The position numbers and the translations under genes were made by a program. DNA of 64,000 nucleotides, taken from a virus. Below the pieces are notes generated by a model. The model was not told where the DNA came from, searched no databases, and was given only the letters and a program-made list of their open reading frames with translations. Below, piece after piece: positions 16,731 through 34,162 of this stretch; position 1 is the first letter of the stretch, and each line of letters begins with the position of its first letter. The stretch covers positions 1-64,000 of IMG/VR virus record IMGVR_UViG_3300025545_000003. The stretch is one strand, 5' to 3'.

Positions 16731-16753
16731 TAACCGCAACACGGGAGGGCCGG

Positions 16754-18280
16754 ATGGCCGAACGATACGAAGAGCGATTGGCCGAACTGATGATGGGCGG
16801 GTCGAGCAACCCCCTCATGACGGACGGCTACAAGTTCTCAATGGCCCAAGCGGGCTTCCCGATGCGTAGGGAGACCTTCTACAGCGGTTGCCGTAAGGGT
16901 GGCCCGCTGTATATCCCGTTCGATCTTGAGCGGGTCGTGCGTGCGTTCCTTCCCAAGCGCCTGCCGGACGGCAAGGAGCGGGGATTCCTCGACGCCCACG
17001 GTTACGGGATGACCCCTGCCATGGAGACGGCCCTTCTCGGGCACGTCGACATCCAGTGCGCCCCGGTGGGATCGTGGGTACTCCCCAAGGAGCCCCTGTT
17101 CACCGTGGACGGCCCCAGCTTCCTCGCCAGTTGGCTGGAGCCTCTCAGCATCATGCTCAACTTCCCCCTCCAGATCGCCACGGCGATAAAGACGGGGGAC
17201 ACCGAAGCCTTCCAGACCTACATCCCCTCCTGCTCGGACGAGGAGCGGATCGCCAACCTGATCGGCGAGTTGATGACCCCGGCCAACTCGGGCTGGACGT
17301 TCCTCACGGAGAACCCCGACCTCTACCAGTCCCTCGTGCGTGAGCGGGGCTTGGCGGTCATCGAGGCCCTCGGCGGGGACGCCCACAGGGCCTTCGAAGT
17401 TGGCATGCGTGCGGCAACCTGCATGCAGCAGCACCGTCTGGCGCTGGAAGCCCTGAAGGGCATCGGGATCTTCAACACGTCCAACGTGTACCTCGCTTGG
17501 CAACTCTACATGATCCCCGTGGGCACCACGGGTCACGAACACCAGATGCGGTGGAGCGCCGTGGACAATGGCGACGAGGCCGGGTTCAAGGCCATCCGGG
17601 ACATGCGCCGGGAGCCCCCGTCCTACCTGTTCGACACCATCGACCCCATGAAGGTCGGGATTCCCACGGCCCTCAAGGTCATGGCGGAAGACCCCTTCCG
17701 TCCCTGTTCGATGCGCTTCGACTCCGGGGATCAGGACGAGCAGCTTACCACCCTCATCATAGGGTGTACGTCGCAGAACGCCGACGGGCGTGACTACTTC
17801 TACCTGACGCCCAACACGATCTTCGAGGACGGCTACACCGCTGAGAAGACCACCGCCAACGAAGCCTACTGCGAGGATCTCGGGTGGCCCCGTAAGCGCC
17901 GCCTGTACGGCTACGGCGGCTACTGGGTCGGCATGTCCGAGATGAATCCCTTTGGCCGCAACAACGTGAGCGCCATCTTCAAGCTGGCGATGACGGGTGG
18001 CGTGGCAGTCAGGAAGCGTTCGGGCACACCGGGCAAGGACAGCCTCCCCGGCCAGCCCGTGATCTGGCGCAGGTGCATCGGCAACGAGAAGGGCACCTTC
18101 AGCCTGATCGGTCAGGCGGGTGAGCCTGTCCCGACCGGCTACTCACCCCTCGGGACGGTCGGCACCTACCTCTACACGAACACAACCGACGCCACCTCTG
18201 AGTTCTCAGAGGGCACCAAGGCTCTGATGCGGGACTGCGCCGCACAGTGGGCGCAGGCGACCGTAGAAGCGGAGGGCTGA
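16754..18280 (+). CDS. pncB: Nicotinate phosphoribosyltransferase-like (PncB/NAPRT)
   Basis: A 508-aa enzyme of the nicotinate/nicotinamide phosphoribosyltransferase family. It has NPLMTDGYKFSMAQAGFP near residue 19 (the TDxYxxxM block), SMRFDSGDQDEQ near 318 (NAPRT has RLDSGDL; NAMPT has a different block there), and GGVAVRKRSGTPGKDSLPG near 415 (NAPRT: IKxSEDPEKxTxPG). This favours nicotinate over nicotinamide as substrate: nicotinate plus PRPP gives NaMN. Start ATG 16754 follows GGGAGG; an upstream ATG at 16709 lies within the promoter. Gene context (nicotinamidase, NadE, NadD) supports NAPRT. Nicotinamide use cannot be fully excluded. Confidence 0.8.
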   Translation: MAERYEERLAELMMGGSSNPLMTDGYKFSMAQAGFPMRRETFYSGCRKGGPLYIPFDLERVVRAFLPKRLPDGKERGFLDAHGYGMTPAMETALLGHVDIQCAPVGSWVLPKEPLFTVDGPSFLASWLEPLSIMLNFPLQIATAIKTGDTEAFQTYIPSCSDEERIANLIGELMTPANSGWTFLTENPDLYQSLVRERGLAVIEALGGDAHRAFEVGMRAATCMQQHRLALEALKGIGIFNTSNVYLAWQLYMIPVGTTGHEHQMRWSAVDNGDEAGFKAIRDMRREPPSYLFDTIDPMKVGIPTALKVMAEDPFRPCSMRFDSGDQDEQLTTLIIGCTSQNADGRDYFYLTPNTIFEDGYTAEKTTANEAYCEDLGWPRKRRLYGYGGYWVGMSEMNPFGRNNVSAIFKLAMTGGVAVRKRSGTPGKDSLPGQPVIWRRCIGNEKGTFSLIGQAGEPVPTGYSPLGTVGTYLYTNTTDATSEFSEGTKALMRDCAAQWAQATVEAEG

Positions 18281-18281
18281 A

Positions 18282-18614
18282 ATGAAAGTGTTGGAAGCAG
18301 GCCGAAAGCAAAAGGGCTGGTCCCATGAGTTCCGTTGCACCGGAGACGGGAACGACGGCGGCGGGTGCGGGGCACTCTTACTTGTGGAGCAGGGAGACCT
18401 GTTCACCACGGCCAGCCACGCCCGTGACGAAACCACGACCTACAAGACCTTCCGCTGCTCCGAGTGCGGCGTGAACACCGACATCGAGAACGACGAGTCC
18501 GGCAAGCGCCTCGTGCCTCGCACCATCTCGGTGCCCGCAGGCGTCAAGCACAAGGACGGCGGGTACACGCACCCGGACGACCCCACGCTCCCCGACACAG
18601 GAGACCCCCGGTGA
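18282..18614 (+). CDS. Zinc-ribbon protein, copy 1 of tandem pair
   Basis: A 110-aa protein beginning MKVLEAGRKQKGW with cysteines in C...GGGC and FRCSECGVNTDI. The next gene is a clear paralogue: MKVLEAGR, GC.ALLL.E.GDLF, FRCS.CG.NTDI, HKDGG.THP are shared. The role is unknown. It is placed between NAPRT and NadE. Confidence 0.65.
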   Translation: MKVLEAGRKQKGWSHEFRCTGDGNDGGGCGALLLVEQGDLFTTASHARDETTTYKTFRCSECGVNTDIENDESGKRLVPRTISVPAGVKHKDGGYTHPDDPTLPDTGDPR

Positions 18615-18928
18615 AGGTGCTGGAAGCAGGACGCAGGAACAAGGCATGGATCGCCGAGATGCGGTGCTCCGGCAACTGGAACGGGGGAAGAGGGTGTGAT
18701 GCGCTCCTTCTCATTGAGCCGGGTGACCTGTTCATCTCGAAGCACCACACACGTCCGAAGGATGTGTGCGCCACGTTCCGCTGTTCCGCATGTGGAGCGA
18801 ACACCGACATCGCCGTTTCCAGCGCCCTCAAAGGGACACTGCCCTTGGGCGTTGACCACAAGGACGGCGGCTGGACGCACCCCACAGACAACGAAGGACG
18901 GGCCGTCAAGCTCGTTGACGGGAGGTAA
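18611..18928 (+). CDS. Zinc-ribbon protein, copy 2 of tandem pair
   Basis: A 105-aa paralogue of the preceding protein, starting at GTG 18611 that overlaps its stop as GTGA. It keeps both Cys pairs (RCSGNWNGGRGC and FRCSACG). The pair arose by tandem duplication. A structural zinc site is likely. A link to NAD metabolism is suggested only by position. Confidence 0.65.
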   Translation: MKVLEAGRRNKAWIAEMRCSGNWNGGRGCDALLLIEPGDLFISKHHTRPKDVCATFRCSACGANTDIAVSSALKGTLPLGVDHKDGGWTHPTDNEGRAVKLVDGR

Positions 18929-18929
18929 C

Positions 18930-20003
18930 ATGAGCGTCCTCGACCCCATCGCCCTGTTCCACGACCGCTCTGCGGCCATCAAGGAGTACCACGAGGAAAC
19001 CGGCGTGCCCCGTGCGGAACTGGACATCTCGGGCGGCATCGACAGCGCCGTGATGGCCTGCCTCCTCAAGGAGGCCCTCGGGGCTGACAAGATCACGATG
19101 GTCCACAGCCGGTTCTCAACCAGCGGCGATCAGACGCAGCGGGCGCAGGGGCTGGCGGACGCCTTGGGCATCCCCATGATCGACTTCAACGGCGAGGCCA
19201 TGTTCAGTGCCCTCCTTGAATCCATGGAATACGCCATCGTGCAAGCCCATGGTGGGCAGATCTGGAGCAGCATCGAAAACCGGGTTGCCTCCGACCCCAC
19301 CATCCTCGGCAGCATCCGCTCCTGCCTGCGAGCGCCTATCGGGCGAGGCTTCAACCGCCTCCTCGGCAACGGCATCCGCCACGGCACGGGGAACGAGTGC
19401 GAAGACCGCTTCATCCGCTTCTACCAAAAGGGTGGCGACGGTGAAGTGGACACCAACCCGATGGCGATGCTCACGAAGACCGAGGTGTACCAGTTGGCTT
19501 TCGCCTGCGGCGAGGTGATGGGCGACGACGTCAAGAGCGCCCTCCGCCCGATCATCGCTGCCCTCCCCTCCCCCGACCTGTGGGGCACAGGGGACGGGCA
19601 CAGCGACGAGCAGGAGTTGCTGGACTGGCTCGGCGTCCCGTTCACTTACGGGCGGGTAGACCCCGACACCGGCAAGGTGCTGCGCTTCGGGACCATCGAG
19701 CGGGTGGCCCGGTTCCTCGACAGCCAGTGGGGAGCTTGCCCCGCCATCGAGACCCGTCTGTTCATAGACGACCTCTCGCAGGACGAGATGCGGCTGCTCG
19801 TAGAGCAGGCGGTGAAGAGCCCTTGCTTCAGGGGCTGCGCCGAGTTCACGACCAGCAACGACTTCCTCATGCTGCTCCGGGCGACCCGGCGGGTGGAACG
19901 CATCACCCGCCACAAGTCCAACCCGGTGATCGCAACCCTGGGAACCCGTGAGGCGCTCGTGTCGAGCGGCCTCCTTACGAACGACCTGACCTTGGAGGAC
20001 TGA
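18930..20003 (+). CDS. nadE: NAD synthetase (NadE-like)
   Basis: A 357-aa protein of the adenine-nucleotide alpha-hydrolase fold. LDISGGIDSAVMACLL near residue 31 is the SGGxDS ATP-binding loop of NAD synthetase. A second conserved stretch follows near 150-185 (GNGIRHGTGNECEDRFIRFY...). No glutaminase domain is present, so it should use ammonia to convert NaAD to NAD+. Start ATG 18930 follows GGGAGG. It lies two bases upstream of the nicotinamidase gene. Confidence 0.85.
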   Translation: MSVLDPIALFHDRSAAIKEYHEETGVPRAELDISGGIDSAVMACLLKEALGADKITMVHSRFSTSGDQTQRAQGLADALGIPMIDFNGEAMFSALLESMEYAIVQAHGGQIWSSIENRVASDPTILGSIRSCLRAPIGRGFNRLLGNGIRHGTGNECEDRFIRFYQKGGDGEVDTNPMAMLTKTEVYQLAFACGEVMGDDVKSALRPIIAALPSPDLWGTGDGHSDEQELLDWLGVPFTYGRVDPDTGKVLRFGTIERVARFLDSQWGACPAIETRLFIDDLSQDEMRLLVEQAVKSPCFRGCAEFTTSNDFLMLLRATRRVERITRHKSNPVIATLGTREALVSSGLLTNDLTLED

Positions 20004-20005
20004 CC

Positions 20006-20851
20006 ATGAAGATCCATCTCCTGATCGTCGACCCGCAGAACGACTTCTGCGACCCCAAAGGGGCCCTGTGCGTGCCGGGAGCGGACGCCGACATGCAGCG
20101 CACGGCTGACATGATCCGCCGCATCGGCCCGAAGCTCGACGACATCCACGTCACCCTCGACTCGCACCAGATGGTGCAGATCGAGCGCCCCGCCTGGTGG
20201 AAGCACGTCACGACCGGCGACATGCCCGCCCCGTTCACCGTTCTCGGCCTGACCCCGGACAACCGGATCGTCGCCGTGGACATGAGCAGCGGCTCCCCCG
20301 TCCTGACGAACGACGAGTACACGACCTTCGCCCCGTCCCTGTACGACGATGCCCGCGCCTACCTGAAGGCCCTCTCCGACGGCGGACGCTACCCGCACGT
20401 CGTGTGGACGAACCACTGCGTGGTGGGCACTTGGGGCTGGGGCATCGTGCCTGACCTCGCCGACGCCCTGTGCAAGTGGGAAGTCAGCGAGAAGGCCCGC
20501 ATCAACTACGTCGTCAAGGGCAACAACCCGAACACGGAGCACTTCAGCGGCGTCCGTGCCGAGGTGCCCGACCCGAACGACCCCTCGACGCAGGTGAACA
20601 CCGGGCTCATCTCCACGCTGGAAGAGGCGGACATGATCGCCGTCACGGGCGAGGCCCTGTCCCACTGCGTGGCCAACACGGTGCGGGACATCGCCGACCT
20701 GTTCAGCGACCCGAAGTACGTGGAGAAGCTCGTCCTGCTGACGGACGCCTCCAGCAACGTCGGCGGCTTCGACTTCCTCGGGGACGCCTTCATGGCGGAC
20801 ATGCTCGCCAAGGGCATGAAGACCTCGACCACGGTCGACTTCCTCGCCTGA
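20006..20851 (+). CDS. pncA: Nicotinamidase (PncA-like cysteine hydrolase)
   Basis: A 281-aa isochorismatase-fold amidohydrolase. LLIVDPQNDFCDP near residue 5 carries the catalytic Asp. TLDSHQ near 49 carries the metal-site Asp and His. VWTNHCVVGTWG lies near 132. EALSHCVANTVRDI near 215 has the catalytic Cys followed by the conserved V-xxT-x-D run. It should deamidate nicotinamide to nicotinate, feeding the NAPRT encoded 1.7 kb upstream. It is somewhat longer than typical bacterial PncA (about 200 aa) because of inserts near 60-120 and 170-200. It is tightly packed after NadE. Confidence 0.85.
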   Translation: MKIHLLIVDPQNDFCDPKGALCVPGADADMQRTADMIRRIGPKLDDIHVTLDSHQMVQIERPAWWKHVTTGDMPAPFTVLGLTPDNRIVAVDMSSGSPVLTNDEYTTFAPSLYDDARAYLKALSDGGRYPHVVWTNHCVVGTWGWGIVPDLADALCKWEVSEKARINYVVKGNNPNTEHFSGVRAEVPDPNDPSTQVNTGLISTLEEADMIAVTGEALSHCVANTVRDIADLFSDPKYVEKLVLLTDASSNVGGFDFLGDAFMADMLAKGMKTSTTVDFLA

Positions 20852-21039
20852 TGCCACGGCGGACGGAGAAGAAGGCTCGGCGGGAACGCCGGGAGGTGGC
20901 CCGTGTCCGGGCACTCGTCCTCGACCCAGGGAACGGGTGCCCGGACATTGAGCGGGCTGACGCCAAGGTACTGCTCGATGAGATAGACCGTCTGGCCGCA
21001 AGGCTGGACAGGGCAGACATACAGAGAACCGAATCCTGA
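20851..21039 (+). CDS. Small basic protein, 62 aa
   Basis: It starts at ATG 20851, overlapping the nicotinamidase stop (TGATG). Very basic N-terminus (PRRTEKKARRERRE) and a helical C-terminus. Possibly nucleic-acid binding. No family recognised. Confidence 0.5.
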   Translation: MPRRTEKKARRERREVARVRALVLDPGNGCPDIERADAKVLLDEIDRLAARLDRADIQRTES

Positions 21040-21054
21040 AGGAGGAACTACATC

Positions 21055-21813: not shown

Positions 21814-21873
21814 TCTGTCCGGTGTTACGGGTACTTAGACACCAGAAGGGTGCAGTACCCGACCGGAGGACAG

Positions 21874-22626
21874 ATGGAAGGCAAGCGGGTCGGCAAGTGG
21901 ACAGTGATCGCACCGGCAGGGCACGACAAGCACAAGATGAGGTTGTGGCTCTGCCGGTGTGGTTGCGGTTATGAGAGGACGTTCGGGACATCCTACCTGA
22001 ATACAGGGCAACCGTCCGCATGCCCTGACTGCCGCAAGTCCCTGAGAGGAACGGCGGAACAGGAATTGAAGGATCAACTTCTCGGCCTAAAGGTGGGGAA
22101 GTACACCGTAACCAAGCTGGCAGGGTACAACAAGTACGGTGGACGGATGTGGCTTTGCCGGTGCGAGTGCGGGTTCGAGAGGACGTTCGGAACGGCATAT
22201 CTGTCAGGGAATGGAAAACGTAAGGCAACTCAATGCCCCGAGTGCTTGCACAAAGAAAGGGAACTGATGAACCGCACTGTGTCTGAGTTGCCAGATCGGT
22301 TCTGGTCCCGTCTAGTGGCACAAGCCGTCAGGCGTGGGATCTCTGTCACCCTTACACAAGAGGAAGCCCGAACCTTGTTCCAAGACCATGGGTGCAGATG
22401 TGCCCTGACAGGGGAACCCCTCTATTTCACACGGCTGCGGACAAACTACAGTCGGTACACGACGGCGTCTTTGGACAGGATCGATTCGGAAAAACCTTAT
22501 GAGAAAGGGAACGTTCAGTGGGTTCACAAGGACGTAAACATGATGAAGGGACGGCTTACGCAAGCCTCTTTCATGAGGTGGTGTGCCCTTGTGGCGGGCG
22601 GCCCCTCGCAGTCCCTCGCCTTCTAG
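21874..22626 (+). CDS. HNH homing endonuclease inserted at the vWA gene 3' end
   Basis: A 250-aa protein with two N-terminal repeats, each with a LWLCRC.CG..RTFGT block and a CPDC or CPEC pair (probable DNA-binding zinc elements). An HNH-like region follows (CALTGEPLY...ASLDRIDSEKPYEKGNVQWVHKDVNMMKG). Start ATG 21874 follows GGAGG. Its last residues, GGPSQSLAF, repeat the C-terminus of the vWA protein in different codons. The gene therefore appears inserted into the vWA 3' end, with the displaced native end now closing the endonuclease frame. GC content is lower than that of its neighbours. Confidence 0.8.
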   Translation: MEGKRVGKWTVIAPAGHDKHKMRLWLCRCGCGYERTFGTSYLNTGQPSACPDCRKSLRGTAEQELKDQLLGLKVGKYTVTKLAGYNKYGGRMWLCRCECGFERTFGTAYLSGNGKRKATQCPECLHKERELMNRTVSELPDRFWSRLVAQAVRRGISVTLTQEEARTLFQDHGCRCALTGEPLYFTRLRTNYSRYTTASLDRIDSEKPYEKGNVQWVHKDVNMMKGRLTQASFMRWCALVAGGPSQSLAF

Positions 22627-22652
22627 GCCACCACCGATAGTGCGTAGGGCAA

Positions 22653-22692
22653 CCGGGGAGGGGCCGTTGGGGGTTCTTATGCCCTTCCCCGG
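22653..22692 (+). terminator. Long hairpin after the HNH gene
   Basis: CCGGGGAGGGGC pairs with GCCCTTCCCCGG around a loop of about 16 nt (12 bp, one G-U). The 3' side runs into the GGCTTAG of the next promoter. There is no T-tract, so termination is uncertain. Confidence 0.4.
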
Positions 22693-22719
22693 CTTAGCCC
22701 TTTTCACCACCGGGTAGAA
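22691..22719 (+). promoter_or_regulatory. Phage-type promoter
   Basis: GGCTTAG, 14 nt, GGGTAGAA. It opens the unit that carries the PP2C phosphatase and protein kinase. Confidence 0.75.
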
Positions 22720-22752
22720 GAAGCAGAACCAGATCTCGTGGAGCAACGTGGG

Positions 22753-23106
22753 ATGAGCAAACCCAAGACAGACTTTCTCGGCCAACCCTTCACGGAGGGC
22801 GGCTGGATTGCTGCCACGGGCAAGGGCAACAGCCACGCTGAGTACGGGATGATCCTCTACCAGATCACGGAGATCCTGCCGGACAAGCTGAAGGCACGAC
22901 GACTCCGGGTCTCCTACAAGGACCGCAAGCCATCGGTGACGGTCGGCAACGTCCGGGTCAGCAACCCGAACAAGTACATCGTGGTCCACCCCCCGGCACA
23001 GGTGACCGATCTGTTCCAGCGTGCCGTCGACAGCGTCCTCACGGATGCCGACTGCACCCTGATCGGGAAGTGGATCCACGGCATGGAGGAGGGTCTGTTC
23101 GCATGA
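22753..23106 (+). CDS. Hypothetical protein, 117 aa
   Basis: The start is taken at ATG 22753; a GTG at 22738 is possible and neither has a strong ribosome site. Beta-rich with basic stretches (KLKARRLRVSYKDRKPSVTVGNVRV). It overlaps the phosphatase start by 4 nt. No family recognised. Confidence 0.55.
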   Translation: MSKPKTDFLGQPFTEGGWIAATGKGNSHAEYGMILYQITEILPDKLKARRLRVSYKDRKPSVTVGNVRVSNPNKYIVVHPPAQVTDLFQRAVDSVLTDADCTLIGKWIHGMEEGLFA

Positions 23107-23918
23107 ACGCTGATCACCATTTCGCCATCGGCAGCACCCACAAGGTCTGCGAGGACTACGCCCGCTCCGGGGAGACCCCCGGCGGCAGGCCCTACGCTGT
23201 GGTCGCCGACGGCTGCTCCTCCAGCCCGGACACGGACTTCGGTTCCCGGTTCCTCACCATGACAGCCATCGAGTGCCTGACCCTCTACGGGATGATCAAG
23301 CCTGAGTGGGTGGCGTGGCGCACGAAGGACCGAGTGTCCCTGCCCCTGCCCGTTCGCTGCCTAGACGCCACCCTGTTGACCCTGCTCGGCAACGACGATG
23401 AGATCTACGCCTCGGTGGCGGGAGACGGCGTTGTCGTAGCCAAGTACCGGGACGGCAAGGTCATGGTGCTAGACGTGGACTACAAGGGAGCCCCCGGCTA
23501 CCTGTCCTACCTGCTCGACCAGTCCCGGTTCGACCTCTACATCTCCGAAGGGTACGGCATCCGCACCGCCAAGGTGTACGTCGACGGCGTGGAGACAACG
23601 GTCATCGAGGACGGGTTCAAGATCACGACCCCGGACGAGTTCGAGACCGGGATGAACTTCAGCCTCGCCGAGTGCGAGATGGTCATGGTCTGCACCGACG
23701 GCGTCCACTCGTTCGTAGACGCCGACCACAACCCCGTGCCGATGCTCGACGTCGTCCAGCACCTCGTCAGTATCAAGAGCTACACGGGCGAGTTCCTTCA
23801 ACGCCGCCTCCGCCGGTTCCTGACCAAGACCTGCCCGAACCTCGGGTGGACTCACGGGGACGACCTCGGGGTGGCCGCCATTTACATCCCCGAACCGGAG
23901 GAGGCCCCCGATGCGTAA
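23103..23918 (+). CDS. PP2C-like protein phosphatase
   Basis: A 271-aa PP2C-type phosphatase. The metal-binding Asp residues are visible in YAVVADGCSSSPDTDFGSR near residue 29, SVAGDGVVVAKY near 106, MVCTDGVHSF near 198 and HGDDLGVAAIY near 254. It should dephosphorylate Ser/Thr, most likely countering the kinase encoded 550 nt downstream. With the vWA protein it fits a TerY-type triad. Start ATG 23103 overlaps the upstream stop. It overlaps the pilin-like gene by 8 nt. Confidence 0.8.
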   Translation: MNADHHFAIGSTHKVCEDYARSGETPGGRPYAVVADGCSSSPDTDFGSRFLTMTAIECLTLYGMIKPEWVAWRTKDRVSLPLPVRCLDATLLTLLGNDDEIYASVAGDGVVVAKYRDGKVMVLDVDYKGAPGYLSYLLDQSRFDLYISEGYGIRTAKVYVDGVETTVIEDGFKITTPDEFETGMNFSLAECEMVMVCTDGVHSFVDADHNPVPMLDVVQHLVSIKSYTGEFLQRRLRRFLTKTCPNLGWTHGDDLGVAAIYIPEPEEAPDA

Positions 23919-24168: not shown

Positions 24169-24169
24169 C

Positions 24170-24475
24170 ATGAGCGACCTCGCCCCAGCAACTACCCAAC
24201 GGCCAGAGCCGTTTGTCGAGTACCACCGGGACCATCCCGAACTGGATACCACTGCGCTCCGTCGGTTCGTGACGAAGTGGCGAGAGATGGGCCACCCTGA
24301 GTTGGGGGAGGTTTGGCGAGATCCCGGTGGGGGCTGGATCCGATGGCTGTGGTTCAAGGACAACGATGGGATGCATCACTGCTTGTGGATTCCTAGCCTC
24401 GTTAACTCGAAACCTTCCCTGACAGACGACGAGACGAAGCTCCTCGTTTACTTGAGGGCAGGAGGATCTGCATGA
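24170..24475 (+). CDS. Hypothetical protein, 101 aa
   Basis: Between the pilin-like gene and the kinase, overlapping the kinase start by 4 nt. Trp-rich middle (WREMGHPELGEVWRDPGGGWIRWLWF). No family recognised. Its tight coupling suggests it acts with the kinase group. Confidence 0.55.
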   Translation: MSDLAPATTQRPEPFVEYHRDHPELDTTALRRFVTKWREMGHPELGEVWRDPGGGWIRWLWFKDNDGMHHCLWIPSLVNSKPSLTDDETKLLVYLRAGGSA

Positions 24476-26154
24476 AAGTCTGGGTCAAGGGGCAGAACAG
24501 CCCGATCAGCCTTACGCAACGGGACTACGTCGGCGAGGGCGGTGAGGGGAAGATCCACGCCAAGGGCGGCATCGCCTACAAGACCTACCACGACCCGAAC
24601 AAGATGCTCCCCCACGGGAAGGTTCAAGCCCTACAGGCGATCCAAGATCCGAACGTGATCCGCCCGCAGGCCCTTCTCGAAGACCAGCAGGGCAAGCCCA
24701 TCGGTTACACGATGCGCTTCATCCCGGACGCTTGGGCCTTGTGCCAGTTGTTCCCCAAGGTGTTCCGTGACAGGAACAACCTTGACCACCCGATGATGCA
24801 GCGCCTTGTCCTGAAGCTCCAACACGTCATGAAGGGCGTCCACGTTGCAGGCGTCCTACTGGTCGACGCCAACGAGATGAACTTCCTCGTGTCCAAGGAC
24901 TTCGCCGAGATCTACGCCATCGACGCCGACAGCTACCAGACCCCCAACTACCCGGCCACGGCCATCATGCCGTCGGTCAGGGACTGGACGATTACGCCCC
25001 CGCACTGGACGGAGGGCTCTGACTGGTACGCCTTCGCCTGCGTGTCCTTCCAGATGTTCACCGGCATCCATCCGTTCAAGGGAAAACACCCGTCCATCAA
25101 GGGACTCGAAGAGCGCATGAAGGCCGGGATCTCCGTGTTCGACCCGAAGGTCAAGGTGCCCCGTGCGACCTATGACTTTGCTGTGATCCCGCAGGCTTAC
25201 AGGGACTGGTACGAGGCCGTGTTCCTGCACGGGCGCAGAGACGCTCCTCCGGGTGACTTCAACGTGGTGGCCATCATCGTCCCGACCGTCAAGGCGGTCA
25301 CGGGCACCGACCTCATCGAGGTGATCGAGTTGGGCCAGTACAGCGGCAACGTCACACGGTACTGGACGACCGGCACCAAGCGGGTCGTGCTGGCAGACAC
25401 CATGTGGGTCGACCGCCGTCAGGTAGGCAAGGCACCCCCGAAGCCCTCGGGTTTGGGTTTCAGCCGGGGCTACGTCCCGGTGCTGGTGGACTCCTCCACG
25501 GACGTCCCCACGCTGCACAACCTCCAAGACCAGACCACGATCCCCTTCAGCCTGAAGGCCGACGAGGTGTCCAGCTACGACGGGCGCATCTACATGAGGG
25601 CCGGGGGCAACCTGTTGGAGATCAAGCTGACGGACGCAGGGAACAAGGTGATCGCTTCTACGCAAGCGGTGGCCAACGTCCTGCCCAACGCTTCCCATCT
25701 GTACCCCGGCGTCCTCTTACAGGACATGCTCGGGTCGACCTTTGCGTCCCTCCTCATTCGTTCCGGGGCCTCACAACAGGTTCGGATCAAGGAGTTGGAT
25801 GAGTACCGTGTGCTGGATGCCAAGTACGACAGCGGCGTCCTCATGGCTGTGGGCGAGAAGAAGGGCCAGTTTGACCGGCTCGTGTTCCGCTTCGACGAGA
25901 CCTTCACCACCTACGACGTGAGGATCGTTGAGGACATCCAGCCGACTGGCCTCAACTTCGTGACCCTCGACTCCGGGGTCTGTGTCTGCCTGAACGAGGA
26001 CGACAAGCTCGAACTGTTCAGCCACCGCAAGGGTTCCAGCAAGGTCAAGGAGATCGAAGACCCCGCCATCAGCGGTGACATGCGACTTGGCAAGGAGGGC
26101 GGCGTGGTGTTGTTCTCCCGTGGCGACCGCCTGTACCGGATGAGGTTGAAGTAG
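24472..26154 (+). CDS. Ser/Thr protein kinase-like with C-terminal beta domain
   Basis: A 560-aa protein. Residues 18-40 (YVGEGGEGKIHAKGGIAYKTYH) form a glycine-rich loop and the strand with the ATP-binding Lys. Near 120-140, HVAGVLLVDANEMNFLV corresponds to the catalytic loop (Asp and Asn kept, HGDL altered). YAIDADSYQ replaces DFG, and SDWYAFACVSFQMFTGIHPFKG matches subdomain IX. The C-terminal 270 residues are beta-rich and may form a propeller. An active or regulatory kinase is likely. Its position with PP2C and vWA proteins supports a phosphorylation module. Confidence 0.7.
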   Translation: MKVWVKGQNSPISLTQRDYVGEGGEGKIHAKGGIAYKTYHDPNKMLPHGKVQALQAIQDPNVIRPQALLEDQQGKPIGYTMRFIPDAWALCQLFPKVFRDRNNLDHPMMQRLVLKLQHVMKGVHVAGVLLVDANEMNFLVSKDFAEIYAIDADSYQTPNYPATAIMPSVRDWTITPPHWTEGSDWYAFACVSFQMFTGIHPFKGKHPSIKGLEERMKAGISVFDPKVKVPRATYDFAVIPQAYRDWYEAVFLHGRRDAPPGDFNVVAIIVPTVKAVTGTDLIEVIELGQYSGNVTRYWTTGTKRVVLADTMWVDRRQVGKAPPKPSGLGFSRGYVPVLVDSSTDVPTLHNLQDQTTIPFSLKADEVSSYDGRIYMRAGGNLLEIKLTDAGNKVIASTQAVANVLPNASHLYPGVLLQDMLGSTFASLLIRSGASQQVRIKELDEYRVLDAKYDSGVLMAVGEKKGQFDRLVFRFDETFTTYDVRIVEDIQPTGLNFVTLDSGVCVCLNEDDKLELFSHRKGSSKVKEIEDPAISGDMRLGKEGGVVLFSRGDRLYRMRLK

Positions 26155-26445
26155 ATGAACCCCCTCGTCATCAAACACATTGACTGCCCCGTGTGCCACG
26201 CCCCCAAGGGCCAGCCCTGCACCCGTGCGAACGGCTGTGGCATGCGGCTGGACGACTTCATGAGGGACGGCCCGCTAGAAGCCCGCCTCGACCTGCACAT
26301 CGACGACAGCATCGCCCTACCACAGCACAAGGACGAGCCTCCGCTGTGGGTGTCTCAAGGGGAGATCGAGGAGGCCAAGGCGTCCGGGCTGTGGGGTACT
26401 GTGGAAGCCCGTGTGAGGGATCGAATAGCCAAGGAACAAGAATGA
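26155..26445 (+). CDS. Small zinc-finger protein
   Basis: A 96-aa protein starting right after the kinase stop. CPVCHAPKGQPCTRANGCGMRLDDF near residue 11 resembles the short CxxC...C...H-type finger common in actinobacterial and phage proteins. The rest is acidic and helical. Function unknown. Confidence 0.6.
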   Translation: MNPLVIKHIDCPVCHAPKGQPCTRANGCGMRLDDFMRDGPLEARLDLHIDDSIALPQHKDEPPLWVSQGEIEEAKASGLWGTVEARVRDRIAKEQE

Positions 26446-27014
26446 AGCAGAACGAACTGGTAGCCCTGATCGATATGGACGGAACCGTCGCTGACTTCGA
26501 CGGCCAGATGCAGCGGGATCTGGAGGCCATGCGGGGGCCGGACGAGGCCCCTTACGAGGCCCACCCCGGAAAGCACCCGAGGCACATCGAAGCCCGCATG
26601 CGGATCATCAAGCAGCGCCCCGGCTGGTGGCGGGAACTCCCGACCCTCCGGTTCGGGATGCGTATGATCTCCGCCCTGAAATCCCACGGGTTCACCCTCA
26701 ACGTCTTGACCAAGGGGCCGTTCCGCAACACCCCTGCATGGACGGAGAAGGTGGAGTGGTGCCGGGAGCACCTCCCCGGCGTGGCCGTGACGATCACGGA
26801 GGACAAGGGCCTCTCCTACGGCAAGGTGCTGATGGACGACTACCCGCCGTACATCGAGCGTTGGCTGGAGTGGCGGCCCCGTGGCCTCGTCATCATGCCC
26901 GACCAGAAGTGGAACAAGGACTTCACCCACCCCAACGTGATCCGGTGGGATGGCTCTACGGAAGCCCTCACTGAAATCACCACCCGCCTCAAGGCCATCG
27001 TGGAGGCCCCATGA
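26442..27014 (+). CDS. HAD-family 5'-nucleotidase (NT5C-like)
   Basis: A 190-aa protein beginning ALIDMDGTVADFDGQM near residue 8, the DxDxT/V HAD motif with the extension typical of 5'(3')-deoxyribonucleotidases. NVLTKGP near 87 supplies motif II. GKVLMDDYPPYIERW near 128 supplies the acidic motif. It should remove phosphate from a nucleoside monophosphate. dNMP is the family norm; NMN or NaMN is conceivable in this neighbourhood. Overlaps on both sides are 4 nt. Confidence 0.7.
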   Translation: MKQNELVALIDMDGTVADFDGQMQRDLEAMRGPDEAPYEAHPGKHPRHIEARMRIIKQRPGWWRELPTLRFGMRMISALKSHGFTLNVLTKGPFRNTPAWTEKVEWCREHLPGVAVTITEDKGLSYGKVLMDDYPPYIERWLEWRPRGLVIMPDQKWNKDFTHPNVIRWDGSTEALTEITTRLKAIVEAP

Positions 27015-27781
27015 GAAACCTCGCCCCTCTCCAACAGCCCGACCAGAAGTGGGCGCTCTACGACAGGCATACCCACGACTTCGTGCGGCTCAACGCCCCC
27101 AGGAGCGTCGTTGAGACGGCGCTCAAAAGCCTCATGGGCATTTCCAGTGCCGCCGCAAGGGCAGAGGCCGACCGGGCCGACTTGCACGAGGACTGGTGGG
27201 CGGACGCAGTGGCTGACTCCGTCGAGGCCCACGGGCCAAGGGCGGCGGGCATCCTCGACACCCTCCTCGCTGACGGGCGGCATACCCACAACGAGATGGG
27301 CCTCATCGCACGCACCCAGACGGTTCACCTCTCCGTCAACGGCCCTGAGCCGGAGCCGATGAGGAACCCCTGCGCCGAGATCTCGTTGCAGCCCTGTGTC
27401 CTGGGTAGCAGGCACATCGCCATCCGTGAGATCCTGATGCCCAAGGACTTGAACCACCACGGGGTCGCCTTCGGCGGTTGGGTCCTGTCCAAGATCGATC
27501 TGGCCGGTGCGGTAGAAGCTAGACGGCATACGCAGCACGACGTCGTGACCCGGTTCATGAACGGGATCGAGTTCACCCACCCTGTGAAGGTGGGCGACCA
27601 GGTCACCTTCTACACGTCGCTGGTCTGTATCGGGAACACCTCCATCACCGTCAAGGTGGAGATCGAGGCCAGCAGGGACGGCAAGGACGCCCCCATCGCT
27701 GTCACAGCGGCGGAGATCGTCTACGTGACCGTCAAGCGGGACGCCACGGGCAACATCCACAAGGTGCCCGTCAAGGGGTAG
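27011..27781 (+). CDS. Hotdog acyl-CoA thioesterase with extra N-terminal domain
   Basis: The C-terminal half (from about residue 130) matches YciA-type acyl-CoA thioesterases: MPKDLNHHGVAFGGWVLSKIDLAGAVEA, FMNGIEFTHPVKVGDQVTFY and GNTSITVKVEI. The N-terminal 120 residues are different and end in MRNPCAEISLQPC, which resembles a conserved block of ribonucleotide reductases. The protein may be a fusion, or may include a relic. The thioesterase call is good. The N-terminal origin is inference. Confidence 0.7.
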   Translation: MRNLAPLQQPDQKWALYDRHTHDFVRLNAPRSVVETALKSLMGISSAAARAEADRADLHEDWWADAVADSVEAHGPRAAGILDTLLADGRHTHNEMGLIARTQTVHLSVNGPEPEPMRNPCAEISLQPCVLGSRHIAIREILMPKDLNHHGVAFGGWVLSKIDLAGAVEARRHTQHDVVTRFMNGIEFTHPVKVGDQVTFYTSLVCIGNTSITVKVEIEASRDGKDAPIAVTAAEIVYVTVKRDATGNIHKVPVKG

Positions 27782-27809
27782 CCCGACCGGGGACGCTGTT
27801 CGGGTAGAG
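27780..27809 (+). promoter_or_regulatory. Phage-type promoter, -10 only
   Basis: GGGTAGAG at 27802 with no GGCTTAG at the usual distance, 16 nt before the methylase start at 27825. GGAGG follows at 27816. Confidence 0.4.
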
Positions 27810-27824
27810 TCCCCCGGAGGTGAC

Positions 27825-28868
27825 ATGGACTACATCGGCTCCAAGGCCAAGCTGCTCGACTGGATCTTCGGGCACGCCGAACGGCACATGCAGATTCTGG
27901 GGATTGATCCCGCCAAGTCTACGTTCTTGGACGCTTGCATGGGGACAGGTGCGGTCACGTTCAAGGCATTGATGACGTTCCAAAAGGTCATCGCCCTCGA
28001 CCTGCTTGCGTTCCCGGCTGTTCGGGTCAACGGCCTGACCACCCTGACAGAGGATGAGGCCCTCGAGAGTGCCACCCATCTGGAGTTGATCTCCGGGCTG
28101 GAGGGGATCGAGGGCTTCTTCTACCGTGAGTACTCACCCGCTGGAAACCGCATGTACCTCACAGAGGACAACGCCAAGCGGGTAGACGCCACCAGACAGT
28201 ACATTGAGAGCGTCAGGAGTCCCCGTGTGCGGGCTTACCTGCTCTACTGTGGGATAGAGGCCATGTCCCGTGTCCTCAACACAGCAGGGACGCAGGGGGC
28301 CTATCTGAAGCACTGGCAGGACAAGGCCCTGAATCCGTACTTCCCGAAGGACGAGATCCTCGTGGCCATGAGTGCCGACGTCACAGCGATGCAGGACGAC
28401 ATCCTCGTGTACCTTGACCATCCGGGCAGGGCACCGGAGGACGTGCTGTACATCGACCCGCCGTACAACAACCGCCAGTACGGCCCCAACTACCACCTCT
28501 ACGATACCTTCGTGATGAACGACAACCCGAGGGTCAAGGGCGTGACCGGGCTCCGCCCGTACCCCCGCTCCACGTTCAGCGGCAAGGCCGAGGACGTGGC
28601 CGACCTGATCCGGGCGATCATGAAGCGGACGACGGCCAAGCTCGTCCTCATCAGCTACAGTTCTGACGGGACACTCAGCCGGGATGAGATGGAGCAGTGC
28701 ATGCTGGAGGGGTTCCAGCACACCGAGATGGAGATCCAGGTCCGGGCCTACAAGCGGTACAAGGCAGACGCCTCCGATGATCGGACGTATTCTGACTCGC
28801 TTCTACGAGAGTACCTGTTCATCATCCGGCATCGCCCGGAGCAATCAGGGCTAAACGACCTCTGGTGA
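27825..28868 (+). CDS. D12-class adenine-specific DNA methyltransferase
   Basis: A 347-aa enzyme starting MDYIGSKAKLLDWIF, the typical D12 opening (YxGSK). The SAM loop is LDACMGTGAVTFKAL near residue 36. The catalytic DPPYNNRQYGPNYH is near 210. This makes N6-methyladenine within a specific DNA site and would protect phage DNA or mark it. No restriction partner is adjacent. It is the second adenine methylase in the window. Confidence 0.85.
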   Translation: MDYIGSKAKLLDWIFGHAERHMQILGIDPAKSTFLDACMGTGAVTFKALMTFQKVIALDLLAFPAVRVNGLTTLTEDEALESATHLELISGLEGIEGFFYREYSPAGNRMYLTEDNAKRVDATRQYIESVRSPRVRAYLLYCGIEAMSRVLNTAGTQGAYLKHWQDKALNPYFPKDEILVAMSADVTAMQDDILVYLDHPGRAPEDVLYIDPPYNNRQYGPNYHLYDTFVMNDNPRVKGVTGLRPYPRSTFSGKAEDVADLIRAIMKRTTAKLVLISYSSDGTLSRDEMEQCMLEGFQHTEMEIQVRAYKRYKADASDDRTYSDSLLREYLFIIRHRPEQSGLNDLW

Positions 28869-28873
28869 TCTCC

Positions 28874-29683
28874 ATGAACCCCTATGAGGGAAAGGTCTGC
28901 CTCGTCACAGGTGCCACGTCAGGGAACGGACTGGCAGTAGCCAAGACCCTGCTCCGCAGGGGAGCCTCCAAGGTCTACACGCTGGGCCGCAACCACGCCA
29001 AGCTCTGGGAGTTGGAAGAGTGCGGCGGCACGTCCCTGTTCTGTGACTTCACGAACCAGGACTCCATCGACGAGGCCGCCGCTGCCGTTCTGGATGGGCC
29101 GCCGCTGGACTACCTGTTCCACCTGGCCGGGAATGCCCTCCACGGCCCCGCAGACGCCTACCAGCGGGGTTCCTTTGTCCGGTCGGACCTACTAGGCCCA
29201 CAGCACCTCATCGAGGGCTTGTTGGGCCACATGAACCCCGGAGCGTGCATGGGGATCGTGACGTCGGGGTCGGCGGCCTTGGGCTCGATCCCGACCCTGC
29301 GGTTCTACCAGAAGGTGAAAGCCGAGATGGTCCGTTGGTGGCACTGCCACCGTGCGGGCTGGCAGGCGAGGGGCATCTACAGCACCCTCATCTCCATGGG
29401 GGTCATCGCTACGGACATCTGGAACAGGACAGACGGCATCAGTCCCGTGACCCGTTACCTGATTCCCAAGGTCGTACCTGGTGCGAACCGTTGGGCGCAG
29501 CAGATTCTGGACGACGTGGCGCAGAGGAAGCTGGTGTCGTACCCAGGACGGTTCTCCAGCCTAGCACCCTTGGATCCGTGGTCGGGGTGCTACTACCCCA
29601 ACCCCATCCTCAAGGCGGCATTTACTGCCGCTGCCCGTGTCTGGACAGGCTTAGAGAGCCGTCAAGCTGTGTTGAAGAGATAG
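28874..29683 (+). CDS. Short-chain dehydrogenase/reductase
   Basis: A 269-aa SDR: VCLVTGATSGNGLAVAKTL near residue 9 (TGxxxGxG), FHLAGNALHG near 85, Ser in TSGSAALG near 130, and the YxxxK pair in FYQKVKAEM near 146. It should use NAD(H) or NADP(H). The start is placed at ATG 28874 because SDRs normally begin about ten residues before the TGxxxGxG loop. A GTG at 28865 overlapping the methylase stop is possible. The substrate is unknown; NAD dependence fits the neighbourhood. Confidence 0.75.
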   Translation: MNPYEGKVCLVTGATSGNGLAVAKTLLRRGASKVYTLGRNHAKLWELEECGGTSLFCDFTNQDSIDEAAAAVLDGPPLDYLFHLAGNALHGPADAYQRGSFVRSDLLGPQHLIEGLLGHMNPGACMGIVTSGSAALGSIPTLRFYQKVKAEMVRWWHCHRAGWQARGIYSTLISMGVIATDIWNRTDGISPVTRYLIPKVVPGANRWAQQILDDVAQRKLVSYPGRFSSLAPLDPWSGCYYPNPILKAAFTAAARVWTGLESRQAVLKR

Positions 29684-29695
29684 AAGGAGGACCTG

Positions 29696-30574
29696 ATGAC
29701 TCGAAACAAACGTGCGGAACTACAGATCGCAGCCCGCCAGTTCATGCGGGTGTGCTCTCTGAAGGCCGCCGAAATGATCGGTGAGGACGGCAACACGGTC
29801 GAGGCCGGGATGCGGTATCACCAGCCCCCGCTCCCCGAGGGCTGCACGATGGGCGACCTGTTCGACCTGATGGACCACGCCCACGTCTACGAGTTCCCCA
29901 AGGTAGACCACACCACCGACGCCGTTGTGTTCGCCCTCGACATCGAGGAGCGCACCCTCAAGGTACTGCTCATCCGCCGTGGCCGTGAAGGAGAGCCCTT
30001 CTATGACCACTGGGCGCTACCGGGCGGCTTCATCAACGAGAACGAGCCTCTCCGTGAAACGGCGATGCGGGAACTGCTGGAAGAGACCGGCGTGGCCCTG
30101 TCCTACATGGAGCAGCTTGCCACCTTCAGCGATCCCGGACGTGACCCCCGAGGCCCGGTCATCTCGACCGCCTACATGGGCCTCGTCCGCCCCAAGGACG
30201 TGACCGTCAAGGCGGACGACGACGCCTCCGACGCCCGCTGGTTCGACGTGGGCGACCTTCCCGACATGGCCTTCGACCACAACAAGATCCTCGCAGAGGG
30301 CCTCAAGCGCCTGCGCTCCAAGCTCCGCTGGCAACCCGTTGGCCTCGGCCTGTTGGACGAGGAGTTCACCCTGACCGAGTTGCAGACCGTGTACGAGATT
30401 ATCCTCGGCCACCAACTCCACAAGGCCAGCTTCCGCCGCAAGGTGGAGAAGCTGGAGGTGCTCATCGACACCGGCAAGACCCGCAAGGCAGGCCACCGGC
30501 CCGCCAAGGTCTACCGCTTTGACACCCCCGCCTACCTCCAACTGGAGGGGCAGGGCATCGAGTTTGAGGTGTGA
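29696..30574 (+). CDS. NrtR-like Nudix protein with winged-helix C-terminus
   Basis: A 292-aa protein. Residues 75-200 form a Nudix domain with a full Nudix box (GGFINENE-7-RELLEETG). Residues 205-292 (LTELQTVYEIILGHQLHKASFRRKVEKLEVL...HRPAKVYRF) match the winged helix of NrtR-type regulators. NrtR proteins bind ADP-ribose and repress NAD salvage genes; others in the family hydrolyse ADP-ribose. The intact box allows hydrolysis. Located between an SDR and the NadD-like gene, it may control or assist NAD synthesis. The N-terminal 70 residues are extra. Confidence 0.75.
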   Translation: MTRNKRAELQIAARQFMRVCSLKAAEMIGEDGNTVEAGMRYHQPPLPEGCTMGDLFDLMDHAHVYEFPKVDHTTDAVVFALDIEERTLKVLLIRRGREGEPFYDHWALPGGFINENEPLRETAMRELLEETGVALSYMEQLATFSDPGRDPRGPVISTAYMGLVRPKDVTVKADDDASDARWFDVGDLPDMAFDHNKILAEGLKRLRSKLRWQPVGLGLLDEEFTLTELQTVYEIILGHQLHKASFRRKVEKLEVLIDTGKTRKAGHRPAKVYRFDTPAYLQLEGQGIEFEV

Positions 30575-30575
30575 C

Positions 30576-30815
30576 ATGGGAGACGTCTGCTACCAGCCTT
30601 CGGGCAGCACCAAGCCCGCCTGCGGCAACAAGGGCAACCAGACCACCTCGGACATGGGGCAGGCCACCTGTCCTGACTGCTACCGTGTGATGCGGGACGG
30701 CTACGACCGTACACAGCTACAGATGGTGGACTACCGGGAGTACGGGGCTTCTCCGCCCACGCCCAGTGAGCCAGAGCCCGAATGGAGCTTCTTCAACCTC
30801 GACACGGTGCATTAG
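30576..30815 (+). CDS. Small Cys-rich protein, 79 aa
   Basis: It starts at ATG 30576, two bases after the Nudix gene. C...C...CPDC spacing in the first 35 residues suggests a zinc ribbon. The C-terminus is Pro/Glu-rich. Function unknown. Confidence 0.55.
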   Translation: MGDVCYQPSGSTKPACGNKGNQTTSDMGQATCPDCYRVMRDGYDRTQLQMVDYREYGASPPTPSEPEPEWSFFNLDTVH

Positions 30816-31085
30816 ATGACTGGACAGGCAGGAACACCCGACGGCCCTGAGTGCGTGTGCTTGAACTGTGAGAGAGGCGTGCTCAGCAAGGTGTTCCTCC
30901 ACGAGGAGCAGCAAGGGTTCGTCATCTTCGCCATGGAGGGGGAGACGGACGGCCTCATCGTCCAGCGTGACCCCCGTGACGGCAAGGCCAAGGTCATGAT
31001 CGGGCCGGTACGCATCGAGACGCCGCCTACCGTGACGGAAGACCCCGACTGCTACGAGATGGGCAGCTACGGAGGCACCGACTGA
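30816..31085 (+). CDS. Hypothetical protein, 89 aa
   Basis: Directly abuts the preceding stop and overlaps the NadD start by one base (TGATG). It has a CVCLNC motif near residue 13 and beta-type sequence after it. No family recognised. Confidence 0.55.
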   Translation: MTGQAGTPDGPECVCLNCERGVLSKVFLHEEQQGFVIFAMEGETDGLIVQRDPRDGKAKVMIGPVRIETPPTVTEDPDCYEMGSYGGTD

Positions 31086-31657
31086 TGTGGCGCTACGGGA
31101 TCTTCGGGGGCGGCTTCAACCCGCCACACCTTGCCCATGTCATGACGGCGGCCTACGCCATCGCACAGCGCAACCTCGAGATCCTGTACGTCAGCCCCTG
31201 CGGCCACCACGCCTTCGCCAAGAACGACAAGCTGATCCCGTGGGAACACCGGGCCGAGATGTGCCGCAGGGCCTTCGAGGGCTTCGGAGGCACCGTCCGC
31301 ATCCCCAAGTGGGAGGAGAAGGGCGACTACACCTATACGGTCGATCTGCTCCGTGACGTAGCCCGCCACGGGGAACCCCACCTCATCATCGGATCGGACA
31401 ACTGGGATCTCCGCCACCAGTGGAAGGGGTGGGACGAGATCCTCGACATCCTTGGCGGGGAGGAGCGCATCCTCGTGGTCCCCCGTCCCGATACCAAGAT
31501 GGCCGAACAGTTGGGGTGGGCGATGCCCGACGTTTCATCCACCCGCCTCCGGGAATTGATCGCTGCGGGCAATACGGACGAGGTTCTTAAGTGGGTGCCC
31601 CCGTCTGTGGTCGCCTACATCAGACACCACGGTCTCTACGGACACACCACACGATAG
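31085..31657 (+). CDS. nadD: Nicotinate/nicotinamide mononucleotide adenylyltransferase (NadD-like)
   Basis: A 190-aa nucleotidyltransferase. GIFGGGFNPPHLAHV near residue 5 is the GGxFxPxHxGH ATP-binding motif. SSTRLRELIAAGN near 155 is the SSTxIR motif. The end WVPPSVVAYIRHHGLY matches the NadD C-terminus (VPxxVxxYIxxxxLY). It adenylates NaMN to NaAD, and perhaps NMN to NAD+. It completes the nicotinamidase-NAPRT-NadD-NadE route, though it sits about 11 kb from the other three genes. Confidence 0.85.
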   Translation: MWRYGIFGGGFNPPHLAHVMTAAYAIAQRNLEILYVSPCGHHAFAKNDKLIPWEHRAEMCRRAFEGFGGTVRIPKWEEKGDYTYTVDLLRDVARHGEPHLIIGSDNWDLRHQWKGWDEILDILGGEERILVVPRPDTKMAEQLGWAMPDVSSTRLRELIAAGNTDEVLKWVPPSVVAYIRHHGLYGHTTR

Positions 31658-32529: not shown

Positions 32530-32535
32530 GAGGGC

Positions 32536-33009: not shown

Positions 33010-33017
33010 CTACAAGC

Positions 33018-34154: not shown

Positions 34155-34162
34155 CTTTCAAT

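What the first reader, a model, noticed from the sequence alone, without database searches (positions are those of the whole stretch)
16754..31657. Complete deamidating NAD+ salvage route encoded by one phage
The sequence shows four enzymes with intact family motifs: nicotinamidase (20006-20851), NAPRT-like (16754-18280), NadD-like (31085-31657) and NadE-like (18930-20003). Together they turn nicotinamide into nicotinate, NaMN, NaAD and NAD+. An NrtR-like Nudix protein (29696-30574) and further NAD-related genes lie between them. Known phage NAD rebuilding pathways (NARP1: ADP-ribose plus nicotinamide; NARP2: NAMPT plus NMNAT) do not use deamidation. A Preiss-Handler version would also start from the nicotinamide released by NAD-cleaving defence systems, which gives it a plausible anti-defence role. 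That role is inference.
Basis: partly seen in the sequence, partly recalled or inferred. Interest (0 to 1): 0.92.

Follow-up and report, generated by a model that had tools for sequence, protein, structure and literature searches.

The report
Huge-phage NAD recycling operon with kinase
A very large virus of bacteria carries all four enzymes needed to turn spent nicotinamide back into the coenzyme NAD+ by a chemical route not previously described for phages, and in dozens of related viruses and some bacteria these genes sit beside a three-protein phosphorylation switch, which suggests a regulated NAD+ module that phages and bacteria have exchanged.

Summary
Observation confirmed. Nicotinamidase (PncA), nicotinate phosphoribosyltransferase (NAPRT), NadE and NadD lie at the stated coordinates with intact catalytic motifs. 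The phosphoribosyltransferase is the nicotinate type, not NAMPT (residue, profile, tree and PDB evidence agree), so the deamidating route is complete on paper. It recurs: 19 distinct virus records encode all four enzymes, and none of 31 carrier records searched has a NAMPT.

PncA is locked to a vWA-PP2C-kinase triad (E. coli YegL-PphC-YegI / TerY-P-like; here the kinase has a C-terminal beta-propeller). Searching from the kinase found PncA in 65 of 66 loci with enough flank and in 32 of 32 large records, against 0 of 14 controls. In some phages all four salvage genes are interleaved with the triad. The same clusters occur on bacterial chromosomes, and the PncA tree mixes phage and cellular branches, so the module is shared.

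The anti-defence role remains inference; NAD+ supply for phage enzymes (NAD+-dependent ligase in 15 of 31 carriers) is an equal rival. Enzyme activity and the kinase's role are untested. Verdict: new variant of a known kind.

The parts
16685..16713 (+). sigma-70-like promoter TTGACT-17-TATGGT, the only one found in 13.8-32.0 kb
   Evidence: consensus match only, and shuffles give 2.3 on average in this region, so candidate
16711..16735 (+). 25-bp inverted repeat GGTTcGTAGCAggtTGCTACtAACC overlapping the likely transcription start; candidate NrtR operator
   Evidence: single copy in the window; regulator assignment is inference
16754..18280 (+). NAPRT (nicotinate phosphoribosyltransferase), 508 aa
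18282..18614 (+). small Cys-rich protein, 110 aa, paralogue of the next
   Evidence: sequence; no Pfam match
18611..18928 (+). small Cys-rich protein, 105 aa, overlaps the previous gene by 4 nt
   Evidence: sequence; no Pfam match; spacing
18930..20003 (+). NadE, NH3-dependent NAD+ synthetase, 357 aa
20006..20851 (+). PncA, nicotinamidase, 281 aa
21055..21813 (+). vWA protein (YegL/TerY-like) with MIDAS motif and conserved C-tail SSQSQxLGTGGPSQxLxF
23103..23918 (+). PP2C phosphatase (PphC/YegK-like)
24472..26154 (+). Ser/Thr kinase (YegI-like) with C-terminal beta-propeller, 560 aa
29696..30574 (+). NrtR-like Nudix plus winged-helix regulator with full Nudix box
31085..31657 (+). NadD, nicotinate mononucleotide adenylyltransferase, 190 aa
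15202..16425 (+). CoaB-like (DFP domain) protein; neighbour that is syntenic in several relatives

Best explanation
This is a regulated NAD+ regeneration module of a huge phage. PncA deamidates nicotinamide to nicotinate, NAPRT makes NaMN from nicotinate and PRPP, NadD makes NaAD, and NadE amidates NaAD to NAD+ using ammonia. An NrtR-type Nudix repressor that senses ADP-ribose or NAD probably controls the first genes through a palindrome at the NAPRT promoter. A vWA-PP2C-kinase triad with a beta-propeller sensor is part of the module and probably gates the salvage enzymes, or the host's use of NAD+, by phosphorylation. Shown by sequence: enzyme families, intact catalytic residues, conserved linkage, recurrence in phages and bacteria. 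Inferred: catalytic activity, flux direction, operator, kinase target. The module is exchanged between bacteria and phages and lets the phage hold NAD+ up during a long infection, whether the drain is its own NAD+-using enzymes or host NADases.
For: Families and motifs. NAPRT not NAMPT: KVP40 NadV has GTDT where the window and nearly all huge-phage homologues have TSN; TIGR01513 2e-16 against NAMPT phrog_448 7e-5; profile against PDB NAPRT 1.6e-58, best NAMPT 1e-11; true NAMPT detected only in a control record (3e-116). NAPRT, the two small genes, NadE and PncA are spaced by -4 to +2 nt. All four salvage genes interleaved with the triad in L007, L008, L017 and L120, and syntenic in L084 and L087. 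PncA in 32 of 32 kinase-anchored large records against 0 of 14 controls, p=4e-12; NadE 22 of 32 against 0 of 14, p=1e-5. Bacterial loci pair the same PncA with NrtR, NAPRT and NadE, which supports its role in NAD salvage.
Against: No biochemistry. NadE (57.4 against 63.65 bits), NadD and NAPRT score below the NCBIfam equivalog cut-offs, so they are divergent. NadD was not detected in more than half of the carriers, so many phages would borrow the host enzyme or use an undetected one. Fisher tests treat related records as independent, and the control records are smaller on average. NrtR-operator pairing is unproven, and the palindromes upstream of relatives' NAPRT genes differ in sequence. The record is a 107-kb fragment.
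Confidence: 0.72

Rival explanations
1. Anti-NADase counter-defence: the module's main role is to rebuild NAD+ after TIR, SIR2 or similar defence effectors cleave it to nicotinamide and ADP-ribose, as NARP1 and NARP2 do by other chemistry.
For: The route starts from nicotinamide, the product of NADases. The NrtR-like regulator belongs to a family that senses ADP-ribose (PMC9503650). NARP1 and NARP2 show that phages do rebuild NAD+ (PMC11984713).
Against: No defence assay. The same cluster is found in bacterial chromosomes. No known counter-defence gene was recognised among the proteins tested. The route costs PRPP and ATP and takes four steps, where NAMPT plus NMNAT needs two.
Confidence: 0.35
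2. Ordinary metabolic supply: the module feeds the phage's own NAD+ demand (NAD+-dependent ligase, redox for nucleotide synthesis) and has nothing specific to do with defence.
For: NAD+-dependent DNA ligase over the cut-off in 15 of 31 large carrier records and 0 of 7 controls; the phage encodes a ribonucleotide reductase, an SDR and other metabolic genes.
Against: Half of the carriers show no such ligase. Ligase use is small beside the cellular NAD+ pool. The near-constant partnership with a signalling triad is not expected of simple supply.
Confidence: 0.35
3. The PncA-vWA-PP2C-kinase set is a signalling or conflict system in its own right (TerY-P-like, as in the triads reported as antiphage modules), in which nicotinamide or nicotinate is a signal and NAD+ salvage is secondary. 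The phage may use it against competing phages.
For: PncA and the triad are linked more tightly than any other pair (65 of 66 loci), while NAPRT, NadE and NadD are often elsewhere or not found. TerY-P-like triads with an OB-fold kinase act as antiphage systems (PMC11090510). The kinase has a predicted beta-propeller that could be a sensor.
Against: No defence-family match for PncA or the triad. Bacterial relatives sit next to NAPRT, NadE and NrtR, which points to metabolism. The kinase lacks the zinc ribbon or OB-fold of known TerY-P kinases.
Confidence: 0.25
4. The 508-aa enzyme is a nicotinamide phosphoribosyltransferase and the route is really NARP2-like.
For: Same fold superfamily; Foldseek ranks NAMPT structures close behind NAPRT.
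Against: Ser replaces the amide-selecting Asp; profile E-values favour NAPRT by many orders; no NAMPT chain in the single-sequence PDB search.
Confidence: 0.04

Closest known systems
NARP2 / phage NadV plus NadM or NadR (e.g. Vibrio phage KVP40)
   Same: phage-encoded route from nicotinamide and PRPP to NAD+
   Different: NARP2 keeps the amide (NMN intermediate, two enzymes); here nicotinamide is deamidated and NAD+ is re-amidated by NadE (four enzymes). None of 31 carrier records searched has a NAMPT.
NARP1 (ADP-ribose pyrophosphate synthetase plus Namat)
   Same: phage rebuilding of NAD+
   Different: different substrates and enzymes; no homologue was sought separately here
Bacterial NrtR-linked PncA-NAPRT-NadE clusters (e.g. 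Chitinimonas L203, Andreprevotia L242)
   Same: same PncA subfamily, NrtR, NAPRT and NadE side by side
   Different: those isolates lack the vWA-PP2C-kinase triad beside them; the phage adds NadD and the triad
TerY-P triad / E. coli yegL-pphC-yegI
   Same: vWA, PP2C and Ser/Thr kinase encoded together in the same order
   Different: kinase C-terminus is a predicted beta-propeller, not a zinc ribbon or OB-fold; nicotinamidase is a near-constant partner
Cyanophage and pelagiphage NadE (e.g. P-TIM68, HTVC008M)
   Same: NH3-dependent NAD+ synthetase in phages
   Different: PncA and NAPRT of the present kind were not found in those records by tblastn

Membership tests
Nicotinamidase (PncA) | catalytic Asp-Lys-Cys triad, DxH...H metal site, aromatic residues sandwiching nicotinamide | tested here: met
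   D9, K171, C221, D52, H54, H137, F14, W134 invariant in 27 homologues; profile's best PDB match is yeast nicotinamidase, 1.4e-15. A further His (position 61) common in relatives is Arg in the window.
Nicotinamidase (PncA) | hydrolyses nicotinamide | not testable with these tools
   needs an enzyme assay
NAPRT | NAPRT motifs and no NAMPT-type Asp at the substrate pocket | tested here: met
   TSNV/GTTGHE/RFDSGD present; Ser in the window and Asp in KVP40 NadV; profile best match 2f7f NAPRT 1.6e-58 (that profile includes one classical bacterial NAPRT, L193)
NAPRT | score over the NCBIfam equivalog cut-off | tested here: not met
   59.8 against 297.4 bits for TIGR01513; divergent member
NadE (NH3-dependent) | NAD synthase domain with SGGxDS and GDG motifs, no nitrilase domain | tested here: met
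   PF02540 62.2 bits over the 21-bit cut-off; motifs; some other phages have the two-domain glutamine-dependent form
NadD | GGxF(D/N)PxHxxH and SSTxxR motifs; closer to NadD than to NadM | tested here: met
   NadD 1.5e-12 against bifunctional NadM-type 0.0013
NrtR | Nudix domain plus NrtR winged helix | tested here: met
   PF21906 6e-24, NF050029 3.5e-48 but under its 400-bit cut-off
NrtR | binds an operator at NAD genes and releases it with ADP-ribose | not testable with these tools
   palindrome at 16711-16735 is only a candidate
TerY-P triad | adjacent vWA, PP2C and Ser/Thr kinase genes | tested here: met
   66 of 66 kinase-anchored loci with 9 kb upstream hold vWA and PP2C; homology to YegL, PphC, YegI
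TerY-P triad | kinase fused to a C-terminal zinc ribbon (or OB-fold in the antiphage form) | tested here: not met
   AlphaFold model shows a beta-propeller (about residues 276-560); so TerY-P-like, not filed as TerY-P
NARP2 | NAMPT plus NMNAT | tested here: not met
   no NAMPT in the window's record or other carriers
NARP1 | ADPR-pyrophosphate synthetase plus Namat | not tested
   homologues were not sought separately
NAD+ counter-defence system | restores NAD+ and phage growth against a NADase defence | not testable with these tools
   needs infection experiments

The most novel reading that the evidence does not exclude
Nicotinamidase, vWA, PP2C and a beta-propeller kinase form an undescribed NAD-linked phospho-signalling system, shared by huge phages and bacteria, which senses NAD+ breakdown and controls a complete deamidating NAD+ resynthesis pathway. 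In phages it acts as a counter-measure to NAD+-depleting immunity distinct from NARP1 and NARP2.
Probability: 0.3. Interest if true: 0.92.

Novelty: new variant of a known kind. Interest (0 to 1): 0.76.

Why it matters
Phage NAD+ rebuilding is a recent and active topic, but the reports found here describe only routes that keep the amide. A deamidating route in at least 19 virus records would make a third chemistry by which phages may restore NAD+. The near-constant link between a nicotinamidase and a kinase-phosphatase-vWA switch, in phages and in bacteria, gives a concrete and testable lead on what YegL-PphC-YegI/TerY-P-like triads do, for which I found no established answer.

Tried and rejected
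Rejected: NAMPT identity of the 508-aa enzyme. Rejected: four unrelated stray genes (synteny). Rejected: a purely phage-specific system, because bacterial chromosomal contexts exist (histidine kinase and MacB/FtsX beside L192, succinyl-CoA ligase beside L168, sigma factor beside L179, molybdate transporter beside L194). Led nowhere: megablast and NAPRT tblastn of the phage collection; RIIA-anchored scan for control phages; exact junction scan for further assemblies; PADLOC (one weak Nudix match only); the 2008 NrtR paper is not held. A strong RNA fold between PncA and vWA (z -4.7) was not pursued, because a short ORF overlapping the PncA stop (from 20850) probably fills that gap.
Full report
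What the window is. The window is bases 1-64,000 of a 106,830-base linear IMG/VR virus record. It encodes RIIA (6975-9164, minus strand), and the rest of the record encodes a ribonucleotide reductase, a UvsX-like recombinase, an exonuclease V/Dda-like helicase, GroEL and a RuvC-like resolvase. ARAGORN finds 35 tRNA genes. No virion gene turned up among the 20 proteins scanned with PHROGs for hallmarks, and the record is a fragment. A syntenic relative is a 435,804-base virus record (L084), so a huge phage is the natural reading. The same ribonucleotide reductase is found at 100% identity in two other virus records (L244, L245), so this virus or a very near one was assembled more than once.

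The four enzymes. All four ORFs are intact at the stated coordinates. Family matches: PncA PF00857 9e-8; NAPRT TIGR01513 2e-16; NadE PF02540 5e-17; NadD TIGR00482 9e-25. Single-sequence comparison with the PDB gives yeast nicotinamidase, human and E. faecalis NAPRT, an NH3-dependent NAD+ synthetase and a NadD as best matches. The catalytic motifs are present in all four. In an alignment of 27 PncA homologues the catalytic triad D9/K171/C221, the metal site D52/H54/H137 and the substrate-stacking F14 and W134 do not vary (roles of these residues from established PncA structures). NAPRT, NadE and NadD score below the NCBIfam equivalog cut-offs, so these are divergent members.

Nicotinate or nicotinamide. 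This decides whether the pathway is new. In NAMPT an Asp (Asp219 in mammals, from general knowledge) contacts the amide. KVP40 NadV, a phage NAMPT, has it (GTDT). The window enzyme, E. coli PncB and all but one of the other homologues aligned have Ser in TSN (Thr in the exception, L177). A profile of the long-type enzymes (A5) matches PDB NAPRTs at 1.6e-58 and 1e-49 and the best NAMPT at 1e-11 (one classical bacterial NAPRT in the profile, L193, helps the NAPRT score, but the window sequence alone also finds only NAPRTs). AlphaFold gives a confident model (pLDDT 89, pTM 0.91) whose top two Foldseek matches are NAPRTs, though NAMPTs follow closely because the fold is shared. As a positive control, the NAMPT family model finds a true NAMPT (3e-116) in a control record that has no PncA or NadE, and only weak cross-matches in the carriers.

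The missed part. PncA is followed on the same strand by a vWA protein, a PP2C phosphatase and a Ser/Thr kinase. Profile comparison matches them one to one with E. coli YegL (1e-5), PphC (8e-6) and YegI (2e-15), and not crosswise; the gene order in E. coli is the same apart from yegJ. The vWA metal site (D43, S47, T113, D149) is invariant, and the protein ends in a conserved Ser-rich tail. The kinase keeps G23/G24, K37, D132, N137 and D151. AlphaFold predicts a kinase domain followed by a beta-propeller (pLDDT 89), and Foldseek matches kinases, WD40-type propellers and LRRK2, which has both. TerY-P triads are described as vWA, PP2C and a kinase with a C-terminal zinc ribbon, and a form with an OB-fold is an antiphage system (PMC11090510). 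The present triad has the same parts but fails the C-terminal criterion, so I call it TerY-P-like.

Linkage counts. Searching from PncA gave 27 virus loci; 28 of the 30 loci then in hand held a vWA gene near PncA. Searching independently from the kinase gave 80 loci. Of the 66 with at least 9 kb upstream, 65 hold PncA and all hold vWA and PP2C. In 32 further records of at least 100 kb found by the kinase, PncA is present in 32, NAPRT in 24, NadE in 22 and a clear NadD in 11. In 14 records found through the unrelated ribonucleotide reductase, PncA is in 0, NadE in 0, NadD in 0, and the NAPRT model rings in 2, at least one of which is a NAMPT. Fisher p values are 4e-12 for PncA and 1e-5 for NadE, with the caveat that records are related and controls are smaller. 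Complete four-enzyme sets occur in 8 distinct PncA-anchored records, including this one, and in 11 kinase-anchored records: 19 in all. In L007/L008, L017 and L120 the order is PncA-vWA-NAPRT-NadE-PP2C-NadD-kinase, all in one run.

Different parts, same pathway. NAPRTs in these phages fall into distinct groups: the long form of the window, E. coli PncB-like forms and a third form. NadE is the short NH3-dependent form in the window and others, and the two-domain glutamine-dependent form in L006, L007 and L017. The same route has thus been put together from different enzymes, which argues for selection on the pathway (inference).

Where it comes from. The PncA profile also finds more than 500 loci in bacterial and archaeal assemblies. 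Of the best 80, 38 have a vWA gene, 31 vWA plus kinase and 22 a NAPRT nearby. Chromosome-type neighbours were confirmed for four. Isolates such as Chitinimonas and Andreprevotia have NrtR-PncA-NAPRT-NadE without the triad. In the PncA tree phage and cellular sequences interleave, with at least 5 and up to 20 switches (many cellular records are MAGs and may include phage contigs). The module has therefore moved between bacteria and phages more than once; direction is not resolved.

Regulation. NAPRT, two small Cys-rich genes, NadE and PncA are spaced by -4 to +2 nt, so they look co-transcribed. The one sigma-70-like promoter found in 18 kb lies before NAPRT, and a 25-bp palindrome overlaps the likely start. 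With an NrtR-like gene in the same cluster this is a candidate operator. The promoter match by itself is no better than chance, and relatives have other palindromes, so this stays a hypothesis.

What it does. The chemistry follows from the families: nicotinamide to nicotinate to NaMN to NaAD to NAD+. The purpose does not. Anti-NADase defence is plausible because NADases release nicotinamide and phages do rebuild NAD+ (NARP1 and NARP2), but no result here tests it. NAD+ supply for phage enzymes is equally open: an NAD+-dependent ligase is over the cut-off in 15 of 31 large carriers and 0 of 7 controls. The triad suggests that the pathway is switched.

Novelty. The 2022 survey of 21,191 viral proteomes names NadV, NadM and NadR as the phage NAD+-synthesis enzymes and does not mention nicotinamidase or NadE (PMC9503650); a jumbo-phage overview is similar (PMC7824862). 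Isolated NadE genes are annotated in cyanophages, PncC is reported in a marine megaphage (PMC9723777) and a nicotinamidase is listed in one gut phage group (PMC10607447). Searches of the held open literature found no report of the four-gene route in a phage or of nicotinamidase with a vWA-PP2C-kinase triad; subscription papers are mostly not held. I rate it a new variant of a known kind.

Noticed in passing
window 21850-22626: HNH/zinc-finger-like ORF between vWA and PP2C ends in GGPSQSLAF, the same tail as vWA, while vWA's own end is written with different codons. It looks like a homing endonuclease inserted into the vWA 3' end that brought a recoded copy of that end.
   Followed up: partly
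window 32292-44918: 34 tRNA genes in about 12.6 kb, several isoacceptors doubled (His, Asp, Lys, Ile, Met), interspersed with small ORFs.
   Followed up: no
window 15202-16425; L084, L109, L110, L113, L016: A CoaB-like phosphopantothenate-cysteine ligase domain protein travels with the NAD module in several phages; a CoA-thioesterase-like gene (27011-27781) also does in some.
   Followed up: partly
window 56220-57632: RtcB-like tRNA-splicing ligase (PHROG 7e-69), possibly RNA repair.
   Followed up: no
L120 (122,654-bp record), NadD frame: NadD is open only if two TAG codons are read through, which hints at a stop-recoded phage with the same module.
   Followed up: no
window 18282-18928: Tandem paralogous Cys-rich small proteins lie between NAPRT and NadE, with no family match.
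   Followed up: no
L192 12150-14414 and L208 12181-14400: In Acidobacteria the PncA-vWA-PP2C-kinase cluster is followed by a conserved 740-755 aa methyltransferase-domain protein.
   Followed up: no
window 20852-21054: Very stable predicted RNA fold (z -4.7) between PncA and vWA; overlaps a probable 62-aa ORF.
   Followed up: partly
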